From the NCBI GenBank assembly GCA_014376445.1, contig JACMRM010000027.1:1-58755 (forward strand): 58,755 nucleotides of DNA. The letters run 5' to 3'. Below the pieces are notes generated by a model. The model saw only the letters and a program-made list of their open reading frames with translations. It was not told the DNA's origin and searched no databases. Source of the DNA: Bacteriovorax sp. (GTDB taxonomy: Bacteria; Bdellovibrionota; Bacteriovoracia; Bacteriovoracales; Bacteriovoracaceae). Of the stretch, positions 20,909-52,748 are shown piece after piece. Position 1 is the stretch's first letter, and each line of letters opens with the position of its first letter. A program made the position numbers and the translations under genes.

Positions 20909-23900
20909 TTGAAAAGCAAAATTTTAATGGGACTATGTCTGTTTTCCACCATGTCGGCCTATGCGGCAGGTAATCTAATAGATAACCCGGGATTTGAATC
21001 TTCACTTAACAGCTGGACAAAAACAGGAATGTTTTCAGCAGTGAAGGATGCTCAAAGTGGACTCTATTCAGCGCGTGGAGGTACAGGACAAGGAACTCTC
21101 GTTCAGGACGTCATGAGCAAACTGACAATCGGCGGGAAATACACTCTTGGTATGTATGCGAAGCTCGATTCAATGGGTGTTTCATCTATGATGTCGATTC
21201 GTTTTAAAAATGCCCGCGGTGGAATCCTGCAGGAAAACAGAATGGTCGTCGGAACGATTGCCTGGAAACAATACTCGACAACGTTTACTGTACCGGCAGG
21301 ATCAACTATCGCAGAAGTTTTTGCGATTAAAGAAACTGGCGCTTCTTCATATATGTATATCGACACTCTCTCACTCATCAGTCTGGACCCGCCACTACCA
21401 CCGCCTAACGTTGCTCCGGCCATTATAGGCTCACAAATAGTAAGTGGTGTTGAGGATACGGCCCTAACTTTTAATGTTGGCGCAGGAACGGATTTTAATG
21501 GAGACGCACTAACTTATACAAAATTATCTAATCCGGCATCAGGCACATTAACTTGTGATGGTGGATCATCACGCACGTGTGTTTATACTCCAGTACAAAA
21601 CTTTAATGGTACAGTATCTTTCACGTATAAAGCCAACGATGGGAAACTTGATTCAAACGTTGGTACTGTAGCTGTTAATATAGTAGCGGTTAACGATGCT
21701 CCTGTTCTTCCAATAGCTGCGCAATCAGTTGGGACAGCAGGAAATACTGCTGTGAACTTCGCACTAAGCCCGGCCACTGATATCGACAGTACGTCGTTGT
21801 CTTATAGTATCGTGACAAATCCGTCATCAGGAACTCTTGCCTGTATAGCAACTGCTTGTACATATACACCAGTGACAGGTTATTTTGGAACAACTAGCTT
21901 TACTTATAAAGCGAATGACGGAAAAGCAGATTCAAACGTTGCGACAGTAACTCTTACAGTCGTTGATACGATCAACAATGCTCCAGTCATTGGTTCAGCT
22001 ACTCAAAGTTATTTAGTACCATACAATACAGCAGTAAGTTTAAATCTTCTGCCAGCAACTGATGCTGACGGTAACGCTCTTACTTATTCAATTGCTGCAA
22101 ATCCATCTTCAGGAGCAGTTGTTTGTAATGTGACAGCATGTACGTATACACCAGCAGCAGGATTTTCAGGAACAACAAGCTTCACTTATAAAGCTAACGA
22201 CGGACAAGCGGATTCAAATATAGCAACAGTTACAATTGTTGTTGCTGCAAGTATTCCTGCTCCAACAGTTGCCTATTCTCCACGCGGAGTTGGTGGTGGT
22301 GGCGCAATGTCAGGTGTTTCACTTTCTCCCTATGCAAATCTATGGTTCGTTGGAACAGATATGGGAACTTTATTCAAGTCGACTGACTTAGGACAAAGCT
22401 GGAATGCTGTTAACCACAATCAGGCAGTTTATGATTCTGATTTAACGAAAGCAGTAAGTGTAGGTTTCTCATCTGACGGTGTAACTGTTTTCCATGCGTC
22501 TGCAGGTATCACTCCGAAGAGGTCAACAAACTCAGGTGATACATTTACCGCGATATCAATGGGACTTTCTTTAGGTGAATTAATTAAATACTGGCTGGGG
22601 GACTCAGCGAATGCGAACATCATGTATGCTGGTACGACAATGGGTTTATTAAGATCAATCAACAAGGGTACATCGTGGACAAGAGTTAACTCTGAAGAAG
22701 CGATCGGAACTTTTATTGATCAGAACACAGCTGGAAAAATTTATCACGCTACAAAAACTAAGATTCTTGTATCGAATGACAACGGTGCGACTTATTCAAC
22801 TTATTACGCACCTGTTTCAGGAGTAAGACTTTTTACAGGTGGATCTGATGCAACAGGATTCACACTTGCGATGTCTGACTTTGATGGTGCGAATGCATGT
22901 TCATGGGCCGTTAAATATACTAACGACTGGGGACAAACTTCAATCGATCAGACAACGGGCGCTTGCGGATATGTTTGGACAAATAAAAATGGTGCGGGAT
23001 TTGCAAAAACTTCGCAGGCCGTTGGTGACCATTTAAAGATGGCAGAAAATGATTCAACAACTATTTACACAACTGGTTCAACTGCATGGATCCGTCAGTA
23101 CGGTACAAAAGTCCATGTGTCTCACGATAAAGGTCAGACATGGGGATTAAAATTAAATCAGATCGACTACGACACTGTTCCATATGCTCCATGGCCTTCA
23201 ACTAAATTAGAATGGTCTGCTGTCGCTCTTGATATTGGATGGTGGGATTCTGGATATGAGTCTTTCGAAATCAACCAGAGAAATTCATCAATGGCCGCGG
23301 GTTCTGGATACTTCTTCATGCACTCGACAGTGAATGCCGGAGAAAACTGGAAAGCACCATTCACAGAATACGCTGATGCGGGAATTCCTGCTGTCGGTAA
23401 AAAATGGAAGACAAGAGGACTTGAAGTCATCTCGGTTTACAAAATGAAATTTCACCCGACAAATACAAACATCATGTATGGAGCATCTGCTGATATCGGT
23501 GGAGTTGTTTCAGAAGATCATGGTATAAGTTTCAGAATTCCAAAATCAGCTTATAACAGCTGGTACGATTTTGCTTTCGATCCTGCTGATGACATGGTGG
23601 CGTACGGCGCCTCTGGTTCTCTTCACGATTACCCGAACGACTGGCATGCCAACGCAGCTACTGCTAACGGCGGTATTTATAAAACAACGGACAGAGGCAG
23701 AAGCTGGACTCGCTTAACTCCGGTAGATACAAGCTACAACCGTCAGTTCCTGTCTGTTGCTTACGATTCTAAGAATAATATCATCTATGGTGGTACACAG
23801 GAAGTTGGTATCGCAGTTTCTAAAAATGATGGAGCGACATGGACATATAACAATGCAGGTCTTCCAGCTGGAAATAAAATTATTCCTCAGATCGAAGTGG

Positions 23901-24484
23901 ATCCGAACACTGGAAACGTTTACGCTCTTCTAACAGGTGATGCTCCAACATTTTCGAACCAAGCATCAACTGGTATTTATTTCTTAGATGTAGTTCACGG
24001 AGCGACTTCGTGGAAACTTTTAAGAGGAGTCGTGAACTATCCTAAAGACGCTGATGCCGGATACAAATTGTGGTTCTTCCCTACAGCTTTCGCAATTGAC
24101 TTCAATAATCCTGGAACTCTTTGGTTAGTTGACTACGAAAACCACGGCCAGTGGCTTGCCACTGGTGCATGGAAATCGACTGATAACGGAGTAACATGGA
24201 ACAGAGTAAAACAAATTACTCACCCGACTGATATCAAAATTGATCCGTCAAATAATAACCAGGTTCACATTGCTTCTTATCACCAGCTTGATGGACAATG
24301 GGGTGACGGTGGACAACTTTATACTACCGATGGTGGTGCAACGTGGATAAAAAATACTGTTCCTCCGCTTCAGCAAAATGCACGCGGTGTAACGATTGAC
24401 CCTACTGACTCAAGTAAGATTTTCTACTCTTACTTTGGCGGAGGTATGCTTTACGGACGCAACCCTGCAAGTGCTGCAAAATAA
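20909..24484 (+). CDS. Large secreted protein: galactose-binding/CBM-like domain, three cadherin/Big-like repeats, C-terminal BNR/GH74-like beta-propeller
   Basis: 1191 aa; TTG start; signal peptide MKSKILMGLCLFSTMSAYAA; NLIDNPGFESSLNSWTKTG; three FTYKANDGKxDSN repeats; YSPRGVGGGGAMSGVSLSPYANLWFVGTDMGTLFKSTDLGQSW and many Ser/Thr-x-Asp-x-Gly-x-Thr-Trp Asp-box-like motifs. Confidence 0.8.
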   Translation: MKSKILMGLCLFSTMSAYAAGNLIDNPGFESSLNSWTKTGMFSAVKDAQSGLYSARGGTGQGTLVQDVMSKLTIGGKYTLGMYAKLDSMGVSSMMSIRFKNARGGILQENRMVVGTIAWKQYSTTFTVPAGSTIAEVFAIKETGASSYMYIDTLSLISLDPPLPPPNVAPAIIGSQIVSGVEDTALTFNVGAGTDFNGDALTYTKLSNPASGTLTCDGGSSRTCVYTPVQNFNGTVSFTYKANDGKLDSNVGTVAVNIVAVNDAPVLPIAAQSVGTAGNTAVNFALSPATDIDSTSLSYSIVTNPSSGTLACIATACTYTPVTGYFGTTSFTYKANDGKADSNVATVTLTVVDTINNAPVIGSATQSYLVPYNTAVSLNLLPATDADGNALTYSIAANPSSGAVVCNVTACTYTPAAGFSGTTSFTYKANDGQADSNIATVTIVVAASIPAPTVAYSPRGVGGGGAMSGVSLSPYANLWFVGTDMGTLFKSTDLGQSWNAVNHNQAVYDSDLTKAVSVGFSSDGVTVFHASAGITPKRSTNSGDTFTAISMGLSLGELIKYWLGDSANANIMYAGTTMGLLRSINKGTSWTRVNSEEAIGTFIDQNTAGKIYHATKTKILVSNDNGATYSTYYAPVSGVRLFTGGSDATGFTLAMSDFDGANACSWAVKYTNDWGQTSIDQTTGACGYVWTNKNGAGFAKTSQAVGDHLKMAENDSTTIYTTGSTAWIRQYGTKVHVSHDKGQTWGLKLNQIDYDTVPYAPWPSTKLEWSAVALDIGWWDSGYESFEINQRNSSMAAGSGYFFMHSTVNAGENWKAPFTEYADAGIPAVGKKWKTRGLEVISVYKMKFHPTNTNIMYGASADIGGVVSEDHGISFRIPKSAYNSWYDFAFDPADDMVAYGASGSLHDYPNDWHANAATANGGIYKTTDRGRSWTRLTPVDTSYNRQFLSVAYDSKNNIIYGGTQEVGIAVSKNDGATWTYNNAGLPAGNKIIPQIEVDPNTGNVYALLTGDAPTFSNQASTGIYFLDVVHGATSWKLLRGVVNYPKDADAGYKLWFFPTAFAIDFNNPGTLWLVDYENHGQWLATGAWKSTDNGVTWNRVKQITHPTDIKIDPSNNNQVHIASYHQLDGQWGDGGQLYTTDGGATWIKNTVPPLQQNARGVTIDPTDSSKIFYSYFGGGMLYGRNPASAAK
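21405..22250 (+). repeat. Three tandem Ig/cadherin-like domain repeats of about 280 bp
   Basis: ATTCAAA within the TTTCAC/ACTTATAAAGC-AACGA-GGxAAAGC-GATTCAAA element recurs at 21651, 21930 and 22212 (279 and 282 bp apart). Confidence 0.75.
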
Positions 24485-27523: not shown

Positions 27524-29014
27524 TTATAAAACGAAATCTTTACAGGCATTTGATGCATTTTTATCGTTATCTGTGCGTATTTTTTGCTGATTTTTATAAT
27601 ATGCACTATAGGCCTTATGTGCCTCTATCGAAATACTTGACCCTATTGCTCTACTCACTTTCGTATTGGTTTTCAATTCATTCAGAATATTTTGGTAGCG
27701 CTGATACTCAGGGTGCTCTCTCATCACTTTTTCTTTCGTCTCTCTTGAAACTTTATAATAGTCTCTTGAGTCTTCAAGTTCTTTTCTTTTTCCTGCTGTA
27801 AGATTGTTATCGAGAAGATCTTTTTCTTTTTCTCTGATTGAATAATCCCAATTACCGTCCAGAAGTTCTTTATGAGTGTACCCTATTGTCTGTCCCATCG
27901 GTGTATTCATGGGCTCACGTTTTTCAAGATCAGGTCTGCTGATTTCCTGCAGCCTTTTAATATAATTTTCCTGAACGTCCCTATACTCAGCAATTTTCTT
28001 TTTTAAATCCGAAAGATCGACAGTCTTTTCTTTTGTAATCTTTTTACTAAACCAGGATTTTCTTTCTATTGAATTTATATCTTCAATAAGTGTTAGAAGA
28101 GTCGTCAGTTGTACATATTCATTCTGGCGGGCACAATAATTGGCAGCTCCATCAATCGCAGTAGATTTTAAATAAGTATCAATTTTATCAAGCTCCATTC
28201 CACGATACTCATCATGATAAAACATATAAGGAGTCAAAAGTGGATAAATCTCGTCTTGAACAACTGTACCTTCAGGTGTTGAGATTTCAGGGAACCCTTC
28301 CCCTTTCAGTGTATCTCGTGTGCTTAAAAATATATCTTCAAGATTTTTTCCTTTCCCCATATTATTTGCAAAAACTTCTGCAAAACTGGAGAATCCATAG
28401 TGCTTTGGCCCTGAAGCAGTAATAACACACGTTTTATCATTGGCAAGAGAAAGTGAATTTCCAGAGTGGCAGCTAGCATCCACAATCGCCAGTTTAACAT
28501 TGGCATCTTTAGCTGCTTTACTTAGGGTCGCAAGATTATCCAAACTGATCATTCCATCACTGCTTCCACTATTTATATTGGTCATTGCAGAAGAAGATGA
28601 AGATATTTTATGAGTATTGCCTGCTGATTCGCCGCCGTGATCAGAAATAAAAAGCATAATTTTTTCCCCCGCCTTGATTTCCGGAGGATTGGCAGTGAGT
28701 TTTTTTATATAGTCGTTAACAATGCTTTCGAAGCTTTGTTGATTAAAACCATTTTTAATACTAGCGCCCTTAAAATTCTCATTAATTATACTTTCGGTCT
28801 GTCGGTGGCCACCATTAAAATTAATCGTCGTTTTATATGAAGATTTATTCTGATTATAGAATACAGAGAAATTTAAAATGCCAGTATCAAACTGGGTTAT
28901 CAGTGCATTTACCGGCTCTCCGCCTCCGCCGATAACCGTCATGTAATTAGTTTCAGCATGAAGAGACAAGGAAGAAAATATTATTGTTAAGAGTATAGTA
29001 GTTTTCATTTGCAC
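27524..29014 (-). CDS. Secreted caspase-like (clan CD) cysteine peptidase
   Basis: 496 aa; signal peptide MQMKTTILLTIIFSSLSLHAE; His motif MLFISDHGGES and Cys motif LAIVDASCHSGNS. Confidence 0.75.
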   Translation of the reverse strand: MQMKTTILLTIIFSSLSLHAETNYMTVIGGGGEPVNALITQFDTGILNFSVFYNQNKSSYKTTINFNGGHRQTESIINENFKGASIKNGFNQQSFESIVNDYIKKLTANPPEIKAGEKIMLFISDHGGESAGNTHKISSSSSAMTNINSGSSDGMISLDNLATLSKAAKDANVKLAIVDASCHSGNSLSLANDKTCVITASGPKHYGFSSFAEVFANNMGKGKNLEDIFLSTRDTLKGEGFPEISTPEGTVVQDEIYPLLTPYMFYHDEYRGMELDKIDTYLKSTAIDGAANYCARQNEYVQLTTLLTLIEDINSIERKSWFSKKITKEKTVDLSDLKKKIAEYRDVQENYIKRLQEISRPDLEKREPMNTPMGQTIGYTHKELLDGNWDYSIREKEKDLLDNNLTAGKRKELEDSRDYYKVSRETKEKVMREHPEYQRYQNILNELKTNTKVSRAIGSSISIEAHKAYSAYYKNQQKIRTDNDKNASNACKDFVL

Positions 29015-29367
29015 TTCTCCTTTTTCACCAAAACGACACTGCCCGATTCATTATAATTTGCAGGATCAGGGGGTGTATGCTCTACTTTAGAAATACTGTC
29101 GAGTTTTCCGCGATAGTCAGAAGTCATTTCAGTAATTTTTGCACGAACTTTTATCGATTGATTCAAGTAAGAAATGACCTGTCTTTCCTGAGCAGAAGTA
29201 AGATTGAATTTGTATTCTGAAATTGATCCTTGATTCACAACAAGGTCATAGGACTTCGTCAATTCATTTTTTTTCAATTCTCCATAGAGATCATAGCTTC
29301 CGCAACCCTTCATCTGAGTGGTGCTGTAAGCATTTAAACTGATGAATAAGAAAAAAATATATTTCAT
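29005..29367 (-). CDS. Small secreted hypothetical protein
   Basis: 120 aa; signal peptide MKYIFFLFISLNAYS; overlaps the caspase-like start by 10 nt. Confidence 0.65.
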   Translation of the reverse strand: MKYIFFLFISLNAYSTTQMKGCGSYDLYGELKKNELTKSYDLVVNQGSISEYKFNLTSAQERQVISYLNQSIKVRAKITEMTSDYRGKLDSISKVEHTPPDPANYNESGSVVLVKKEKCK

Positions 29368-29368
29368 A

Positions 29369-30115
29369 TTAATGCTGGCTGTGAAGTTCTAATAACTCCT
29401 GAATGATTTTTGCATCTTTAACGACAAATGCATCGAATGTTTTTGATTCATTGCTAGCGACCCATGGAAAAAACGGTGCTGATTTTGAAACACCGATGTA
29501 AACATCTACGTGATTCGTCTTGATAGCTCCACCTTTGTCAGCTGCGAAAAAATATCCGTCGTGAATAATTGTTCTTCCGTTGGCGAGTAAGATTCTAGCT
29601 CCACGAGCTTTTGGAACATATATTGCTGTGCCTGGTGAAATAACAGCACCGTCTGTCGCGAGTGTTCTGTACGGAGCTAATATATAGTCATCAAGCCCGT
29701 CGCCGTAAACACCGTTAGCTTCACGAAATTTTGTCTTTCCGATTTTTGGATATTTTGCGTAGATTGAAGAACAGTCTACGAAATGATCATCCGTTGTATT
29801 GTGATAATTGAAAGTTTTAGCTTCACCATTTTTAAAATTGATTTTTACTGAACCTTCCATTGCCGTATCACACCAGTGTTTCAGTGTAACTCTCGGACCT
29901 AGCTCTTGTCCTTTAAGGTCACGAAGAGGATTACTTCCAGAATCTTCTGCTATTTCCGGAAGATAATAGTAGGTCGCCCATAATTTTAGAGATGGCCCCA
30001 GATCACTTTTAGCTGGTTCTGCCATCTCAAAACGATCATTGTCCAATGGATCTGTGGCGTATGAGTTGAAAGAACAAAACAATAGAGCGAAAACTAAAAA
30101 AGTCATCTTTAACAT
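29369..30115 (-). CDS. Secreted 3D (Asp-Asp-Asp) domain protein, possibly MltA/YuiC-related
   Basis: 248 aa; signal peptide; TLATDGAVISPGTAIYVPKARG...HDGYFFAADKGGAIKTNHVDVYIG. RBS AGGAG upstream. Confidence 0.7.
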   Translation of the reverse strand: MLKMTFLVFALLFCSFNSYATDPLDNDRFEMAEPAKSDLGPSLKLWATYYYLPEIAEDSGSNPLRDLKGQELGPRVTLKHWCDTAMEGSVKINFKNGEAKTFNYHNTTDDHFVDCSSIYAKYPKIGKTKFREANGVYGDGLDDYILAPYRTLATDGAVISPGTAIYVPKARGARILLANGRTIIHDGYFFAADKGGAIKTNHVDVYIGVSKSAPFFPWVASNESKTFDAFVVKDAKIIQELLELHSQH

Positions 30116-51136: not shown

Positions 51137-51410
51137 GCGTTTCCCCCTGATTGAATAAATAAATAAGAAAGTACTGTATTTGAATTTATACCCATAAAAA
51201 GGGGGTCGCAAATAAACCTCCCTATTTGTAAGAATTTAGTAAATTTTCAGGGATTTACTGAAACCTGAAGATGACTTGGGGACATTCTGGCACCAGCTTA
51301 GTTGTAGATTTTACAAGATCCTTGATCAAAATTGTGTTACGCGCTATATCATGGCCAGCTTACATTTAAAATACACAGTAATCGATTCAAAATACTACCT
51401 AAGAGGGCCT

Positions 51411-52748
51411 ATGAAGATTTCAACAATTACCAGTGCAGCTTTGATCGCACTAACTATGACGTCTGCATTTGCCTCGGATAAAACTGATGCAGATTTCGAC
51501 AAGCTTTTAACTGCAAATAAAATTGCTCCCAAAGACCAGCAGTCTTATTGCTACACTGATGAAAATGGAAAGCTTCAGGGAACAAATGTTGATACGAAAA
51601 TTCGACTTGCTTCAGTTTCAAAACTTTTAACTACCCTATGGGCCATCGATCAAAAAGGCCCTAGCTACAGATACGAAACAAAACTTTTTATTAAAGGCAG
51701 CAATCTTCACATCCAGGGAAGCTTCGATCCATTCATGAGCAATGAGAAAATGTTATATCTCGTTTCTCAGTTAAACACTCTTGGATATAAGCACTTTGAT
51801 AAAATCACTTACGATAAAAATATCCAGATTTTCCCGAACGCTCAGGTTCACACAGACCCATACCCTCTAATTACAAGGGACTCGAATGGAAAAAACCTGA
51901 CAACATATTTTAATACGGCTTCATGGTCAAAAATTTTTAAAACTGAGTACGATCGTTTAGCGAGCCTTGCAAAAAAAGACCGTTATTTAAAATCAGTTGA
52001 TATGAGTGTCGATAAAGTTGAGTTTGCTGACAAAAACCCTCTGCTTGCTGACGTAACTGCAATTCCGGAAGACGTTAAAGTCCTAACGTTATCATCTCCA
52101 CAAATGTACAAATATTTAAAAGAAACAAACGTTCAATCAAACAACTACTCTGCTCATACAATCTTTTTAGATTTAGGTGGAGAAGCCAAATTTGCCCAGT
52201 ACCTTGCAGATAAATTCAGCTTAACAACTGATAAAGTAAAAATGTACAACGGGAATGGTCTTCCTACGAATATCGCTGGTGTTCGTAAAGATAACTACGC
52301 TACTTGCGCAATCATGACTGAATTAATCAGCTCTTTAAAAGAGTCGATTGAAAAACAAGGTATGGAGATTGAAGATGCTGTAGCAGTTCCAGGAAGTGAT
52401 GCGGGAACATTTGCCAACAGACTTAACTCAAGTGATTTGAAAAACTCTTTCGTCGCTAAAACCGGAACATTAATGCATACATCAACTCTTGCTGGTGCAA
52501 TGAATACGACAAAAGGATTTTCATTCTTTGGTGTATTTAATATGACGACAGATATTGTTGGAGCTAAAAAGGTTCAGAATGCAATGGTAGCATCTGTAAT
52601 GGAAGAAATGGGCGGGCCAAAAACATTTGGCTATCAAGTTGAAGGATTTCACTCTTACGACAGCAATGAAAATGTTAAAAACTTTAACATCTTCGACGCT
52701 GATGAAGACACAGGGTTTAGTGCTATTGATGAAAGCGGATTACACTAA
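51411..52748 (+). CDS. dacB: D-alanyl-D-alanine carboxypeptidase/endopeptidase (PBP4, peptidase S13)
   Basis: Signal peptide MKISTITSAALIALTMTSAFA; SxxK (ASVSKLLTT), SxN (QSNNYSAHTIF), KTG (AKTGTLMHTSTLAG). Internal start. Confidence 0.88.
   Translation: MKISTITSAALIALTMTSAFASDKTDADFDKLLTANKIAPKDQQSYCYTDENGKLQGTNVDTKIRLASVSKLLTTLWAIDQKGPSYRYETKLFIKGSNLHIQGSFDPFMSNEKMLYLVSQLNTLGYKHFDKITYDKNIQIFPNAQVHTDPYPLITRDSNGKNLTTYFNTASWSKIFKTEYDRLASLAKKDRYLKSVDMSVDKVEFADKNPLLADVTAIPEDVKVLTLSSPQMYKYLKETNVQSNNYSAHTIFLDLGGEAKFAQYLADKFSLTTDKVKMYNGNGLPTNIAGVRKDNYATCAIMTELISSLKESIEKQGMEIEDAVAVPGSDAGTFANRLNSSDLKNSFVAKTGTLMHTSTLAGAMNTTKGFSFFGVFNMTTDIVGAKKVQNAMVASVMEEMGGPKTFGYQVEGFHSYDSNENVKNFNIFDADEDTGFSAIDESGLH

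What the first reader, a model, noticed from the sequence alone, without database searches (positions are those of the whole stretch)
27524..30115. Secreted operon: 3D-domain protein, small protein, caspase-like peptidase
Three minus-strand genes are packed together (1-nt gap, then 10-nt overlap) and each begins with a signal peptide. The first has a 3D-domain signature associated with cell-wall lytic proteins, and the last has a clan CD His/Cys dyad (ISDHGG and VDASCHSG) followed by about 230 aa of unknown C-terminal region. A dedicated exported caspase-like peptidase translated with a wall-active partner could be a predation, toxin-processing or envelope-remodelling module.
Basis: partly seen in the sequence, partly recalled or inferred. 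Interest (0 to 1): 0.72.

Follow-up and report, generated by a model that had tools for sequence, protein, structure and literature searches.

The report
Predator protease with dedicated small partner
Predatory-type bacteria (Bdellovibrionota) carry repeated two-gene units that encode an exported caspase/legumain-like protein-cutting enzyme and a small exported partner that probably blocks it until needed; the neighbouring cell-wall-type gene is only a chance neighbour.

Summary
The three genes are real, but the unit is a pair, not a trio. The third gene (27524-29008) encodes an exported clan CD peptidase. Its His124/Cys180 dyad is kept in 106 of 107 relatives, and its predicted fold (pLDDT 90) is closest to legumain (C13; VIA Z 17.7). 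The middle gene encodes an exported ~100-residue protein with a near-invariant Cys22/Cys119 pair and OB-fold-like predicted topology. In 91 of 107 non-redundant relatives across Bdellovibrionota the two genes lie side by side on one strand, and the order has flipped an estimated 9 times (at least 4 on well-supported branches). This genus has up to five copies per genome, and the pair evolves several-fold faster than its neighbours. The 3D-domain gene is genuine but sits beside the pair in only 4 of 14 genomes of the genus; one relative keeps the same neighbourhood without the pair. I read the unit as a secreted peptidase with a cognate inhibitor (self-protection) protein that may present a conserved [D/N]-P loop to the active site. 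Pairing and dyad are shown and the fold is predicted with confidence; inhibition is inferred (about 60%). It is a new variant of the known peptidase-inhibitor gene pair.

The parts
27524..29008 (-). Exported clan CD (legumain/caspase-fold) cysteine peptidase, 494 aa, ATG start at 29008
   Evidence: AF2 model pLDDT 89.9; best structural matches are legumains, VIA Z 17.7, 203 aligned, 2.9 A; dyad conserved 106/107
28637..28639 (-). Codon of catalytic His124 (ISDHGG)
   Evidence: invariant in alignment A1, 106/107 in the wider set
28469..28471 (-). Codon of catalytic Cys180 (VDASCHSG)
   Evidence: invariant in A1, 106/107 in the wider set
27542..28186 (-). Approximate helical insertion (residues ~275-489) before the last core segment of the peptidase fold; conserved Cys292 and Cys489
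   Evidence: DSSP of the model; structural matches run to residue 494; C292 101/107 and C489 105/107
29005..29367 (-). Small exported partner, 120 aa, predicted OB-fold-like domain, Cys22/Cys119; proposed inhibitor of the peptidase
   Evidence: adjacent to 91 of 107 non-redundant peptidases; topology b-b-b-a-b-b-b in the read-through model of a paralogous pair
29062..29067 (-). Codons of Asp101-Pro102 in the conserved P-[D/N]-P-L loop of the partner (proposed reactive loop)
   Evidence: D or N in 66 of 89 and P in 71 of 88 sequences; the equivalent loop is where the model's alignment to prolegumain prodomains ends
29369..30115 (-). Exported 3D-domain protein, 248 aa; conserved syntenic neighbour, not part of the pair
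   Evidence: PF06725 E 1.2e-10; present in 14/14 genus genomes, next to the pair in 4

Best explanation
The finding is one copy of a repeated two-gene unit: a Sec-exported legumain-like cysteine peptidase and its dedicated small exported partner. Most likely the partner is a cognate periplasmic inhibitor, a self-protection protein. Both are translated together and exported, the OB-fold-like partner caps the active-site face of the freshly folded peptidase, and its conserved P-[D/N]-P-L loop presents a substrate-like, proline-blocked Asn/Asp to the S1 site. The peptidase is thus held harmless in the producer's own envelope until it is separated from its partner, for instance on release into prey. 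Shown: genes, conserved dyad, pairing, co-inheritance, fast divergence. Predicted with confidence: the clan CD fold. Inferred: physical binding, inhibition, loop mechanism, use in predation.
For: Pairing: 39 of 39 intact peptidases in the first set (38 in the window's genus, one in another genus of the family) have the partner adjacent on the same strand. So do 91 of 107 non-redundant peptidases across the phylum, mostly with overlaps of 4-10 nt or short gaps. Reciprocal test: starting from apparently peptidase-less small proteins, neighbours of L244 and L254 are independently matched by Pfam Peptidase_C13 (E 2.1e-4, just under the cut-off; and 2.5e-5, above it), and L248 and L250 have clan CD-like motifs. 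Order: 55 peptidase-first, 36 partner-first; the tree needs 9 order changes, at least 4 on starred branches. Co-inheritance: Mantel r 0.72, 0 of 2000 permutations. Fold: legumain Z 17.7, metacaspase 16.4, MALT1 15.8, caspases 15.6; the read-through model is also closest to legumain (Foldseek E 1.5e-6). Docking hint: in the read-through model of a paralogous pair from the same genome, 13 legumain chains that retain the prodomain align through residues 588-595, the conserved LNPLNPED loop of the partner, to residues in the C-terminal prodomain. Such chains aligned only to the end of the catalytic domain when the peptidase alone was compared. Divergence from the G007 orthologue: dN 0.29 and 0.39 for the pair, 0.04-0.05 for three neighbours. 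Precedent: Bd3460 protects Bdellovibrio from its own exported endopeptidases (PMC4686830); mycocypins inhibit legumain with a substrate-like P1-Asn loop (PMC9579014).
Against: No activity, binding or inhibition data exist. The read-through model's pTM is 0.76 against 0.86 for the peptidase alone, so the relative placement is uncertain, and no PAE or coordinates were available. The docking hint rests on the first and last aligned residues only. About nine peptidases have no detectable partner (for example L207, L208, L209 with E 1e-63 to 1e-77). The [D/N]-P motif is absent from some partners, mainly divergent ones, and the window's own loop (PPDPANYNESG) departs from the consensus after PDP. 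Co-inheritance shows linkage, not binding. The S1 pocket and P1 preference were not determined.
Confidence: 0.6

Rival explanations
1. The partner is a trans-acting folding or activation factor, a detached equivalent of legumain's C-terminal prodomain, needed to make the peptidase competent rather than to restrain it.
For: Legumain's C-terminal domain controls the zymogen and is needed for stability and expression (PMC4357240); the model's alignment places the partner's loop near that prodomain's position; the two genes are usually kept together, and in two decayed copies (L039, L040) both genes are degraded or truncated.
Against: About nine peptidases have no detectable partner, nearly all of them with an intact dyad. 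The partner is predicted as a small OB-like barrel, not a helical domain, and diverges faster than the enzyme in the one orthologous comparison made.
Confidence: 0.2
2. The pair is a two-subunit processing enzyme or a transpeptidase/ligase with its dedicated substrate or substrate-binding subunit. The legumain fold group includes peptide ligases and the GPI transamidase.
For: The structural matches include plant asparaginyl ligases and GPI transamidase 8imx. Usually one peptidase per partner, with many paralogous pairs.
Against: The partner has no evident sorting tail or membrane anchor, and its conserved elements are a cysteine pair and two loops of a folded domain.
Confidence: 0.1
3. Contact- or predator-competition toxin with immunity protein: the peptidase is delivered to other cells, and the partner gives kin-specific immunity.
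For: Multi-copy, fast-diverging cognate pairs; Mantel correlation among paralogues.
Against: No recognised delivery domain: a plain signal peptide and one peptidase domain. No clear set of orphan partner genes, as immunity genes often leave; nearly all partners sit by a clan CD gene or a contig end.
Confidence: 0.07
4. First reader's module: a trio in which the 3D protein opens peptidoglycan and the peptidase acts with it.
For: Three packed genes with likely coupled translation; the 3D domain is real.
Against: The 3D gene adjoins the pair in 4 of 14 genus genomes and stays at the same locus without it in G010. The pair usually occurs without it elsewhere.
Confidence: 0.03

Closest known systems
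Legumain / asparaginyl endopeptidase (MEROPS C13, clan CD)
   Same: Clan CD fold with HG...C dyad; closest solved fold (Z 17.7); Pfam C13 matches 9 of 39 relatives weakly
   Different: 7-14% identity to legumain structures; ~200-residue helical insertion before the last core segment instead of a C-terminal LSAM prodomain; the window protein itself does not match the Pfam C13 model; exported bacterial protein with a separate partner gene
Metacaspases / caspases / MALT1 (C14)
   Same: Same core fold and dyad; the SCHSG motif resembles metacaspase DSCHSG (motif from own knowledge)
   Different: Lower Z (15.4-16.4) than legumain in the structural comparison; no C14 Pfam match; exported
Bdellovibrio Bd3459/Bd3460 endopeptidase-ankyrin self-protection pair (PMC4686830)
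   Same: Predator gene pair, both exported; the small partner blocks the enzyme in the predator's own periplasm
   Different: Ankyrin repeat inhibitor against peptidoglycan DD-endopeptidases; here a clan CD peptidase with an OB-like partner, and inhibition is not shown
Mycocypins and cystatin E/M, legumain inhibitors (PMC9579014)
   Same: Small proteins that hold a conserved Asn in a substrate-like loop; proposed parallel to the P-[D/N]-P loop
   Different: Unrelated eukaryotic folds (beta-trefoil, cystatin); no sequence relation found; inhibition not shown here
Operon-encoded bacterial protease inhibitors (staphopain-staphostatin, AprA-AprI, Tannerella KLIKK-potempin; from own knowledge)
   Same: Small dedicated inhibitor encoded next to its secreted protease
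   Different: Other protease families and other inhibitor families; not compared by sequence here

Membership tests
Clan CD cysteine peptidases | His-Gly ... Cys catalytic dyad after two core strands | tested here: met
   H124 and C180 invariant in A1, 106/107 in the wider set; each follows a strand in the model (116-122, 172-177)
Clan CD cysteine peptidases | caspase-like alpha/beta core | tested here: met
   VIA Z 15-17.7 to legumain, metacaspase, MALT1 and caspases, on a predicted model
C13 (legumain) | sequence match to the family model at its cut-off | tested here: not met
   the window protein has no C13 match; 9 of 39 relatives match at E up to 0.1, best E 2.6e-6; the three members that matched when scanned singly score below the cut-off
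C13 (legumain) | C-terminal LSAM-type prodomain | tested here: inconclusive
   the peptidase alone aligns only to the catalytic domain of prolegumains; its own helical region lies before the last core segment; that region was not folded or searched alone
C13 (legumain) | cleavage after Asn/Asp | not testable with these tools
   needs enzyme assay
C14 caspase/metacaspase | sequence match to Peptidase_C14 | tested here: not met
   no C14 match for the window protein, nor among the 25 families shown for 39 members
3D-domain proteins (PF06725) | match above Pfam cut-off | tested here: met
   41.8 bits against 23.8
Peptidase-inhibitor gene pairs | adjacent, co-directional, co-inherited partner gene | tested here: met
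   91 of 107, order flips, Mantel r 0.72
Peptidase-inhibitor gene pairs | partner binds and inhibits the peptidase | not testable with these tools
   indirect model hint only
OB-fold proteins | five-stranded barrel with helix between strands 3 and 4 | tested here: inconclusive
   DSSP order b-b-b-a-b-b-b fits; partner not searched alone against structures; no Pfam or PDB sequence match

The most novel reading that the evidence does not exclude
A previously undescribed family of bacterial peptidase inhibitors: disulphide-closed OB-like barrels that use a proline-locked Asn/Asp loop against exported legumain-like peptidases, expanded as cognate pairs in Bdellovibrionota as a self-protection system for prey-directed proteolysis.
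Probability: 0.4. Interest if true: 0.75.

Novelty: new variant of a known kind. Interest (0 to 1): 0.55.

Why it matters
How predatory bacteria keep their prey-digesting enzymes from harming themselves is known in mechanism for very few enzymes. This pair gives an unannotated, multi-copy, testable case, and it extends the legumain/caspase fold to an exported bacterial family with a dedicated partner gene. If the partner is an inhibitor, it is a new inhibitor family against a protease fold of medical interest.

Tried and rejected
Trio as a module: rejected on synteny. Defence-system link: no PADLOC match. Known family for the partner: no convincing Pfam, NCBIfam or PDB sequence match. Profile search of PDB with the peptidase family: no match. 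The first alignment-based scan of genome contigs failed for lack of conserved stretches; a 13-row subset worked and found 40 loci, all in records named as Bacteriovoracaceae, Bacteriovorax, Bdellovibrio, Bdellovibrionales or Oligoflexia; that scan is limited to two peptide patterns, so absence elsewhere is not shown. Literature searches for Bdellovibrio or Bacteriovorax with legumain, caspase or metacaspase gave nothing relevant by title and abstract, in an open-access library only. No OB-fold chain stands out among the listed structural matches of the read-through model, but the peptidase domain fills the list. The signal-peptide heuristic was too crude to use (75 and 74 of 91; background 375 of 1116 in noisy reading frames). 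Presence in the model strain B. bacteriovorus HD100 could not be checked.

Full report
What is there. Three minus-strand ORFs lie at 29369-30115, 29005-29367 and 27524-29014. The gap between the first two is 1 nt. The third is better started at ATG 29008, with an AAGGAG 8 nt upstream; it then overlaps the middle gene by the 4-nt ATGA, as do its close homologues. The 3D domain is real (PF06725, E 1.2e-10). The peptidase has no adequate Pfam match on its own.

The real unit is a pair. A protein search of 57 related genomes found the peptidase in 13 of 14 genomes of the window's genus, usually three copies each and five matches in the window's own genome (one degraded), plus one genome of another genus in the family. 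The small protein has much the same pattern. Iterative profiles on the fetched loci showed the small gene next to every peptidase, on the same strand, before or after it. In two decayed copies (L039, L040) both genes are degraded or truncated. The pattern holds in nearly all of 40 named loci, including Bdellovibrio bacteriovorus strain kdesi, and in most further members found over 368 genomes of the phylum.

Counting. Over a non-redundant set, 91 of 107 peptidases are paired, 55 with the peptidase first and 36 with the partner first; in one locus (L188) a single small gene serves two of these. Of the 16 not paired automatically, L203 has a partner ORF that the distance rule missed, L205 is at a contig end, L219, L225 and L231 have weak partner matches, L221 and L226 have an unannotated small exported ORF, and about nine have none. 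The tree requires 9 changes of gene order, at least 4 on well-supported branches, so adjacency has outlived repeated rearrangement. The distance matrices of the two families correlate (Mantel r 0.72 overall, 0.79 within the 39 pairs of the first set; 0 of 2000 permutations each). This shows co-inheritance as a unit; it does not prove binding.

Reciprocal test. Seven small proteins without a detected peptidase were examined. One is at a contig end; four have a neighbouring large gene with clan CD features, three by motif (L244, L248, L250) and one by Pfam (L254). Two of these neighbours are matched by Pfam Peptidase_C13, L254 at E 2.5e-5 above its cut-off and L244 at E 2.1e-4 just below. The pairing is therefore recovered from the partner's side by an independent model.

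The peptidase. H124, G125, C180, G183 and C194 are invariant in 39 close members; the dyad is kept in 106 of 107, and the one exception (L222) also lacks a partner. The AlphaFold2 model has pLDDT 89.9 and pTM 0.86. Foldseek lists caspases, legumain and MALT1; VIA ranks legumains first (Z 17.7, 203 residues, 2.9 A), then metacaspase 16.4, MALT1 15.8 and caspases 15.6. In every listed match the alignment runs to residue 494, so the ~200-residue helical region is an insertion within the catalytic fold and not an added C-terminal domain (inferred from alignment ends). Because the window protein fails the C13 and C14 models, it is filed as a clan CD peptidase that works like a legumain or caspase, not as a member of C13.

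The partner. It has a near-invariant C22 and C119 and two conserved stretches, roughly V-N-[EP]-[GK]-[TS]-x-S-E and P-[D/N]-P-L. In some paralogous pairs the partner follows the peptidase in the same frame after one stop codon. Reading that stop as glycine gave natural single-chain constructs, which were aligned and one of them folded. The partner part is well predicted (pLDDT about 76-94 per block of ten), with topology b-b-b-a-b-b-b, which fits an OB-fold. Overall pTM is 0.76, so the relative placement is uncertain. Still, 13 legumain chains that retain the prodomain align through residues 588-595, the LNPLNPED loop of the partner, onto that C-terminal prodomain, while the proenzyme chains listed for the peptidase alone stop at the end of the catalytic domain. 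This suggests, without proving, that the conserved loop sits on the face where legumain's own prodomain lies.

Rates and neighbourhood. Between the window and its G007 orthologue, dN is 0.29 (peptidase) and 0.39 (partner), against 0.04-0.05 for the 3D, LpdA and DLH genes (dS is near saturation, so only dN is used). The 3D gene is in 14 of 14 genus genomes but next to the pair in four. In G010 the LpdA-DLH-DUF374-3D block is intact and followed by other genes, without the pair. The 3D gene is therefore a conserved neighbour and the pair is the accessory element.

Mechanism. Known biology supplies two precedents. Bdellovibrio exports Bd3460 to block its own prey-directed endopeptidases, and loss of it makes the predator damage itself (PMC4686830). 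Legumain is blocked by mycocypins that offer a substrate-like loop with a P1 asparagine (PMC9579014), and by its own C-terminal domain (PMC4357240). On the evidence here the best reading is a peptidase with a cognate exported inhibitor, at about 60%; an activating or folding partner is the main rival, at about 20%. That these organisms use the pair in predation is inferred from taxonomy alone.

Novelty. Gene pairs of exported protease and dedicated inhibitor are a known kind. This protease family with this partner is not adequately covered by Pfam, NCBIfam or PADLOC, and no description was found in the searchable literature; it is rated a new variant of a known kind.

Noticed in passing
51276-52748 (+): Peptidase_S13 (DacB/PBP4-like) protein, E 2e-19; D-Ala-D-Ala carboxypeptidase family, possibly comparable to Bdellovibrio's prey-rounding endopeptidases.
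   Followed up: no
20909-24484 (+): 1191-aa protein with cadherin-like and Big_9 repeats, a CBM_4_9 domain and a sortilin/BNR segment; possible surface adhesin.
   Followed up: no
L222:2977-4227 (+): The only one of 107 relatives without the His/Cys dyad; it also lacks a small partner gene.
   Followed up: partly
L207, L208, L209: Clear peptidase family members (E 1e-63 to 1e-77) with no detectable partner next door.
   Followed up: partly
L188 and L130: Two peptidases with one small partner gene between them, a departure from one partner per peptidase; probably the same locus seen in two collections.
   Followed up: no
L040 (G000:C22) and L039 (G001:C31): Decayed copies of the pair with stops in the peptidase and a broken or truncated partner.
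   Followed up: partly
L232:5729-7301 (+): In G010 the 3D gene is followed by unrelated ORFs, two of them HTH-like by eye, where the pair sits in the window's genome.
   Followed up: no
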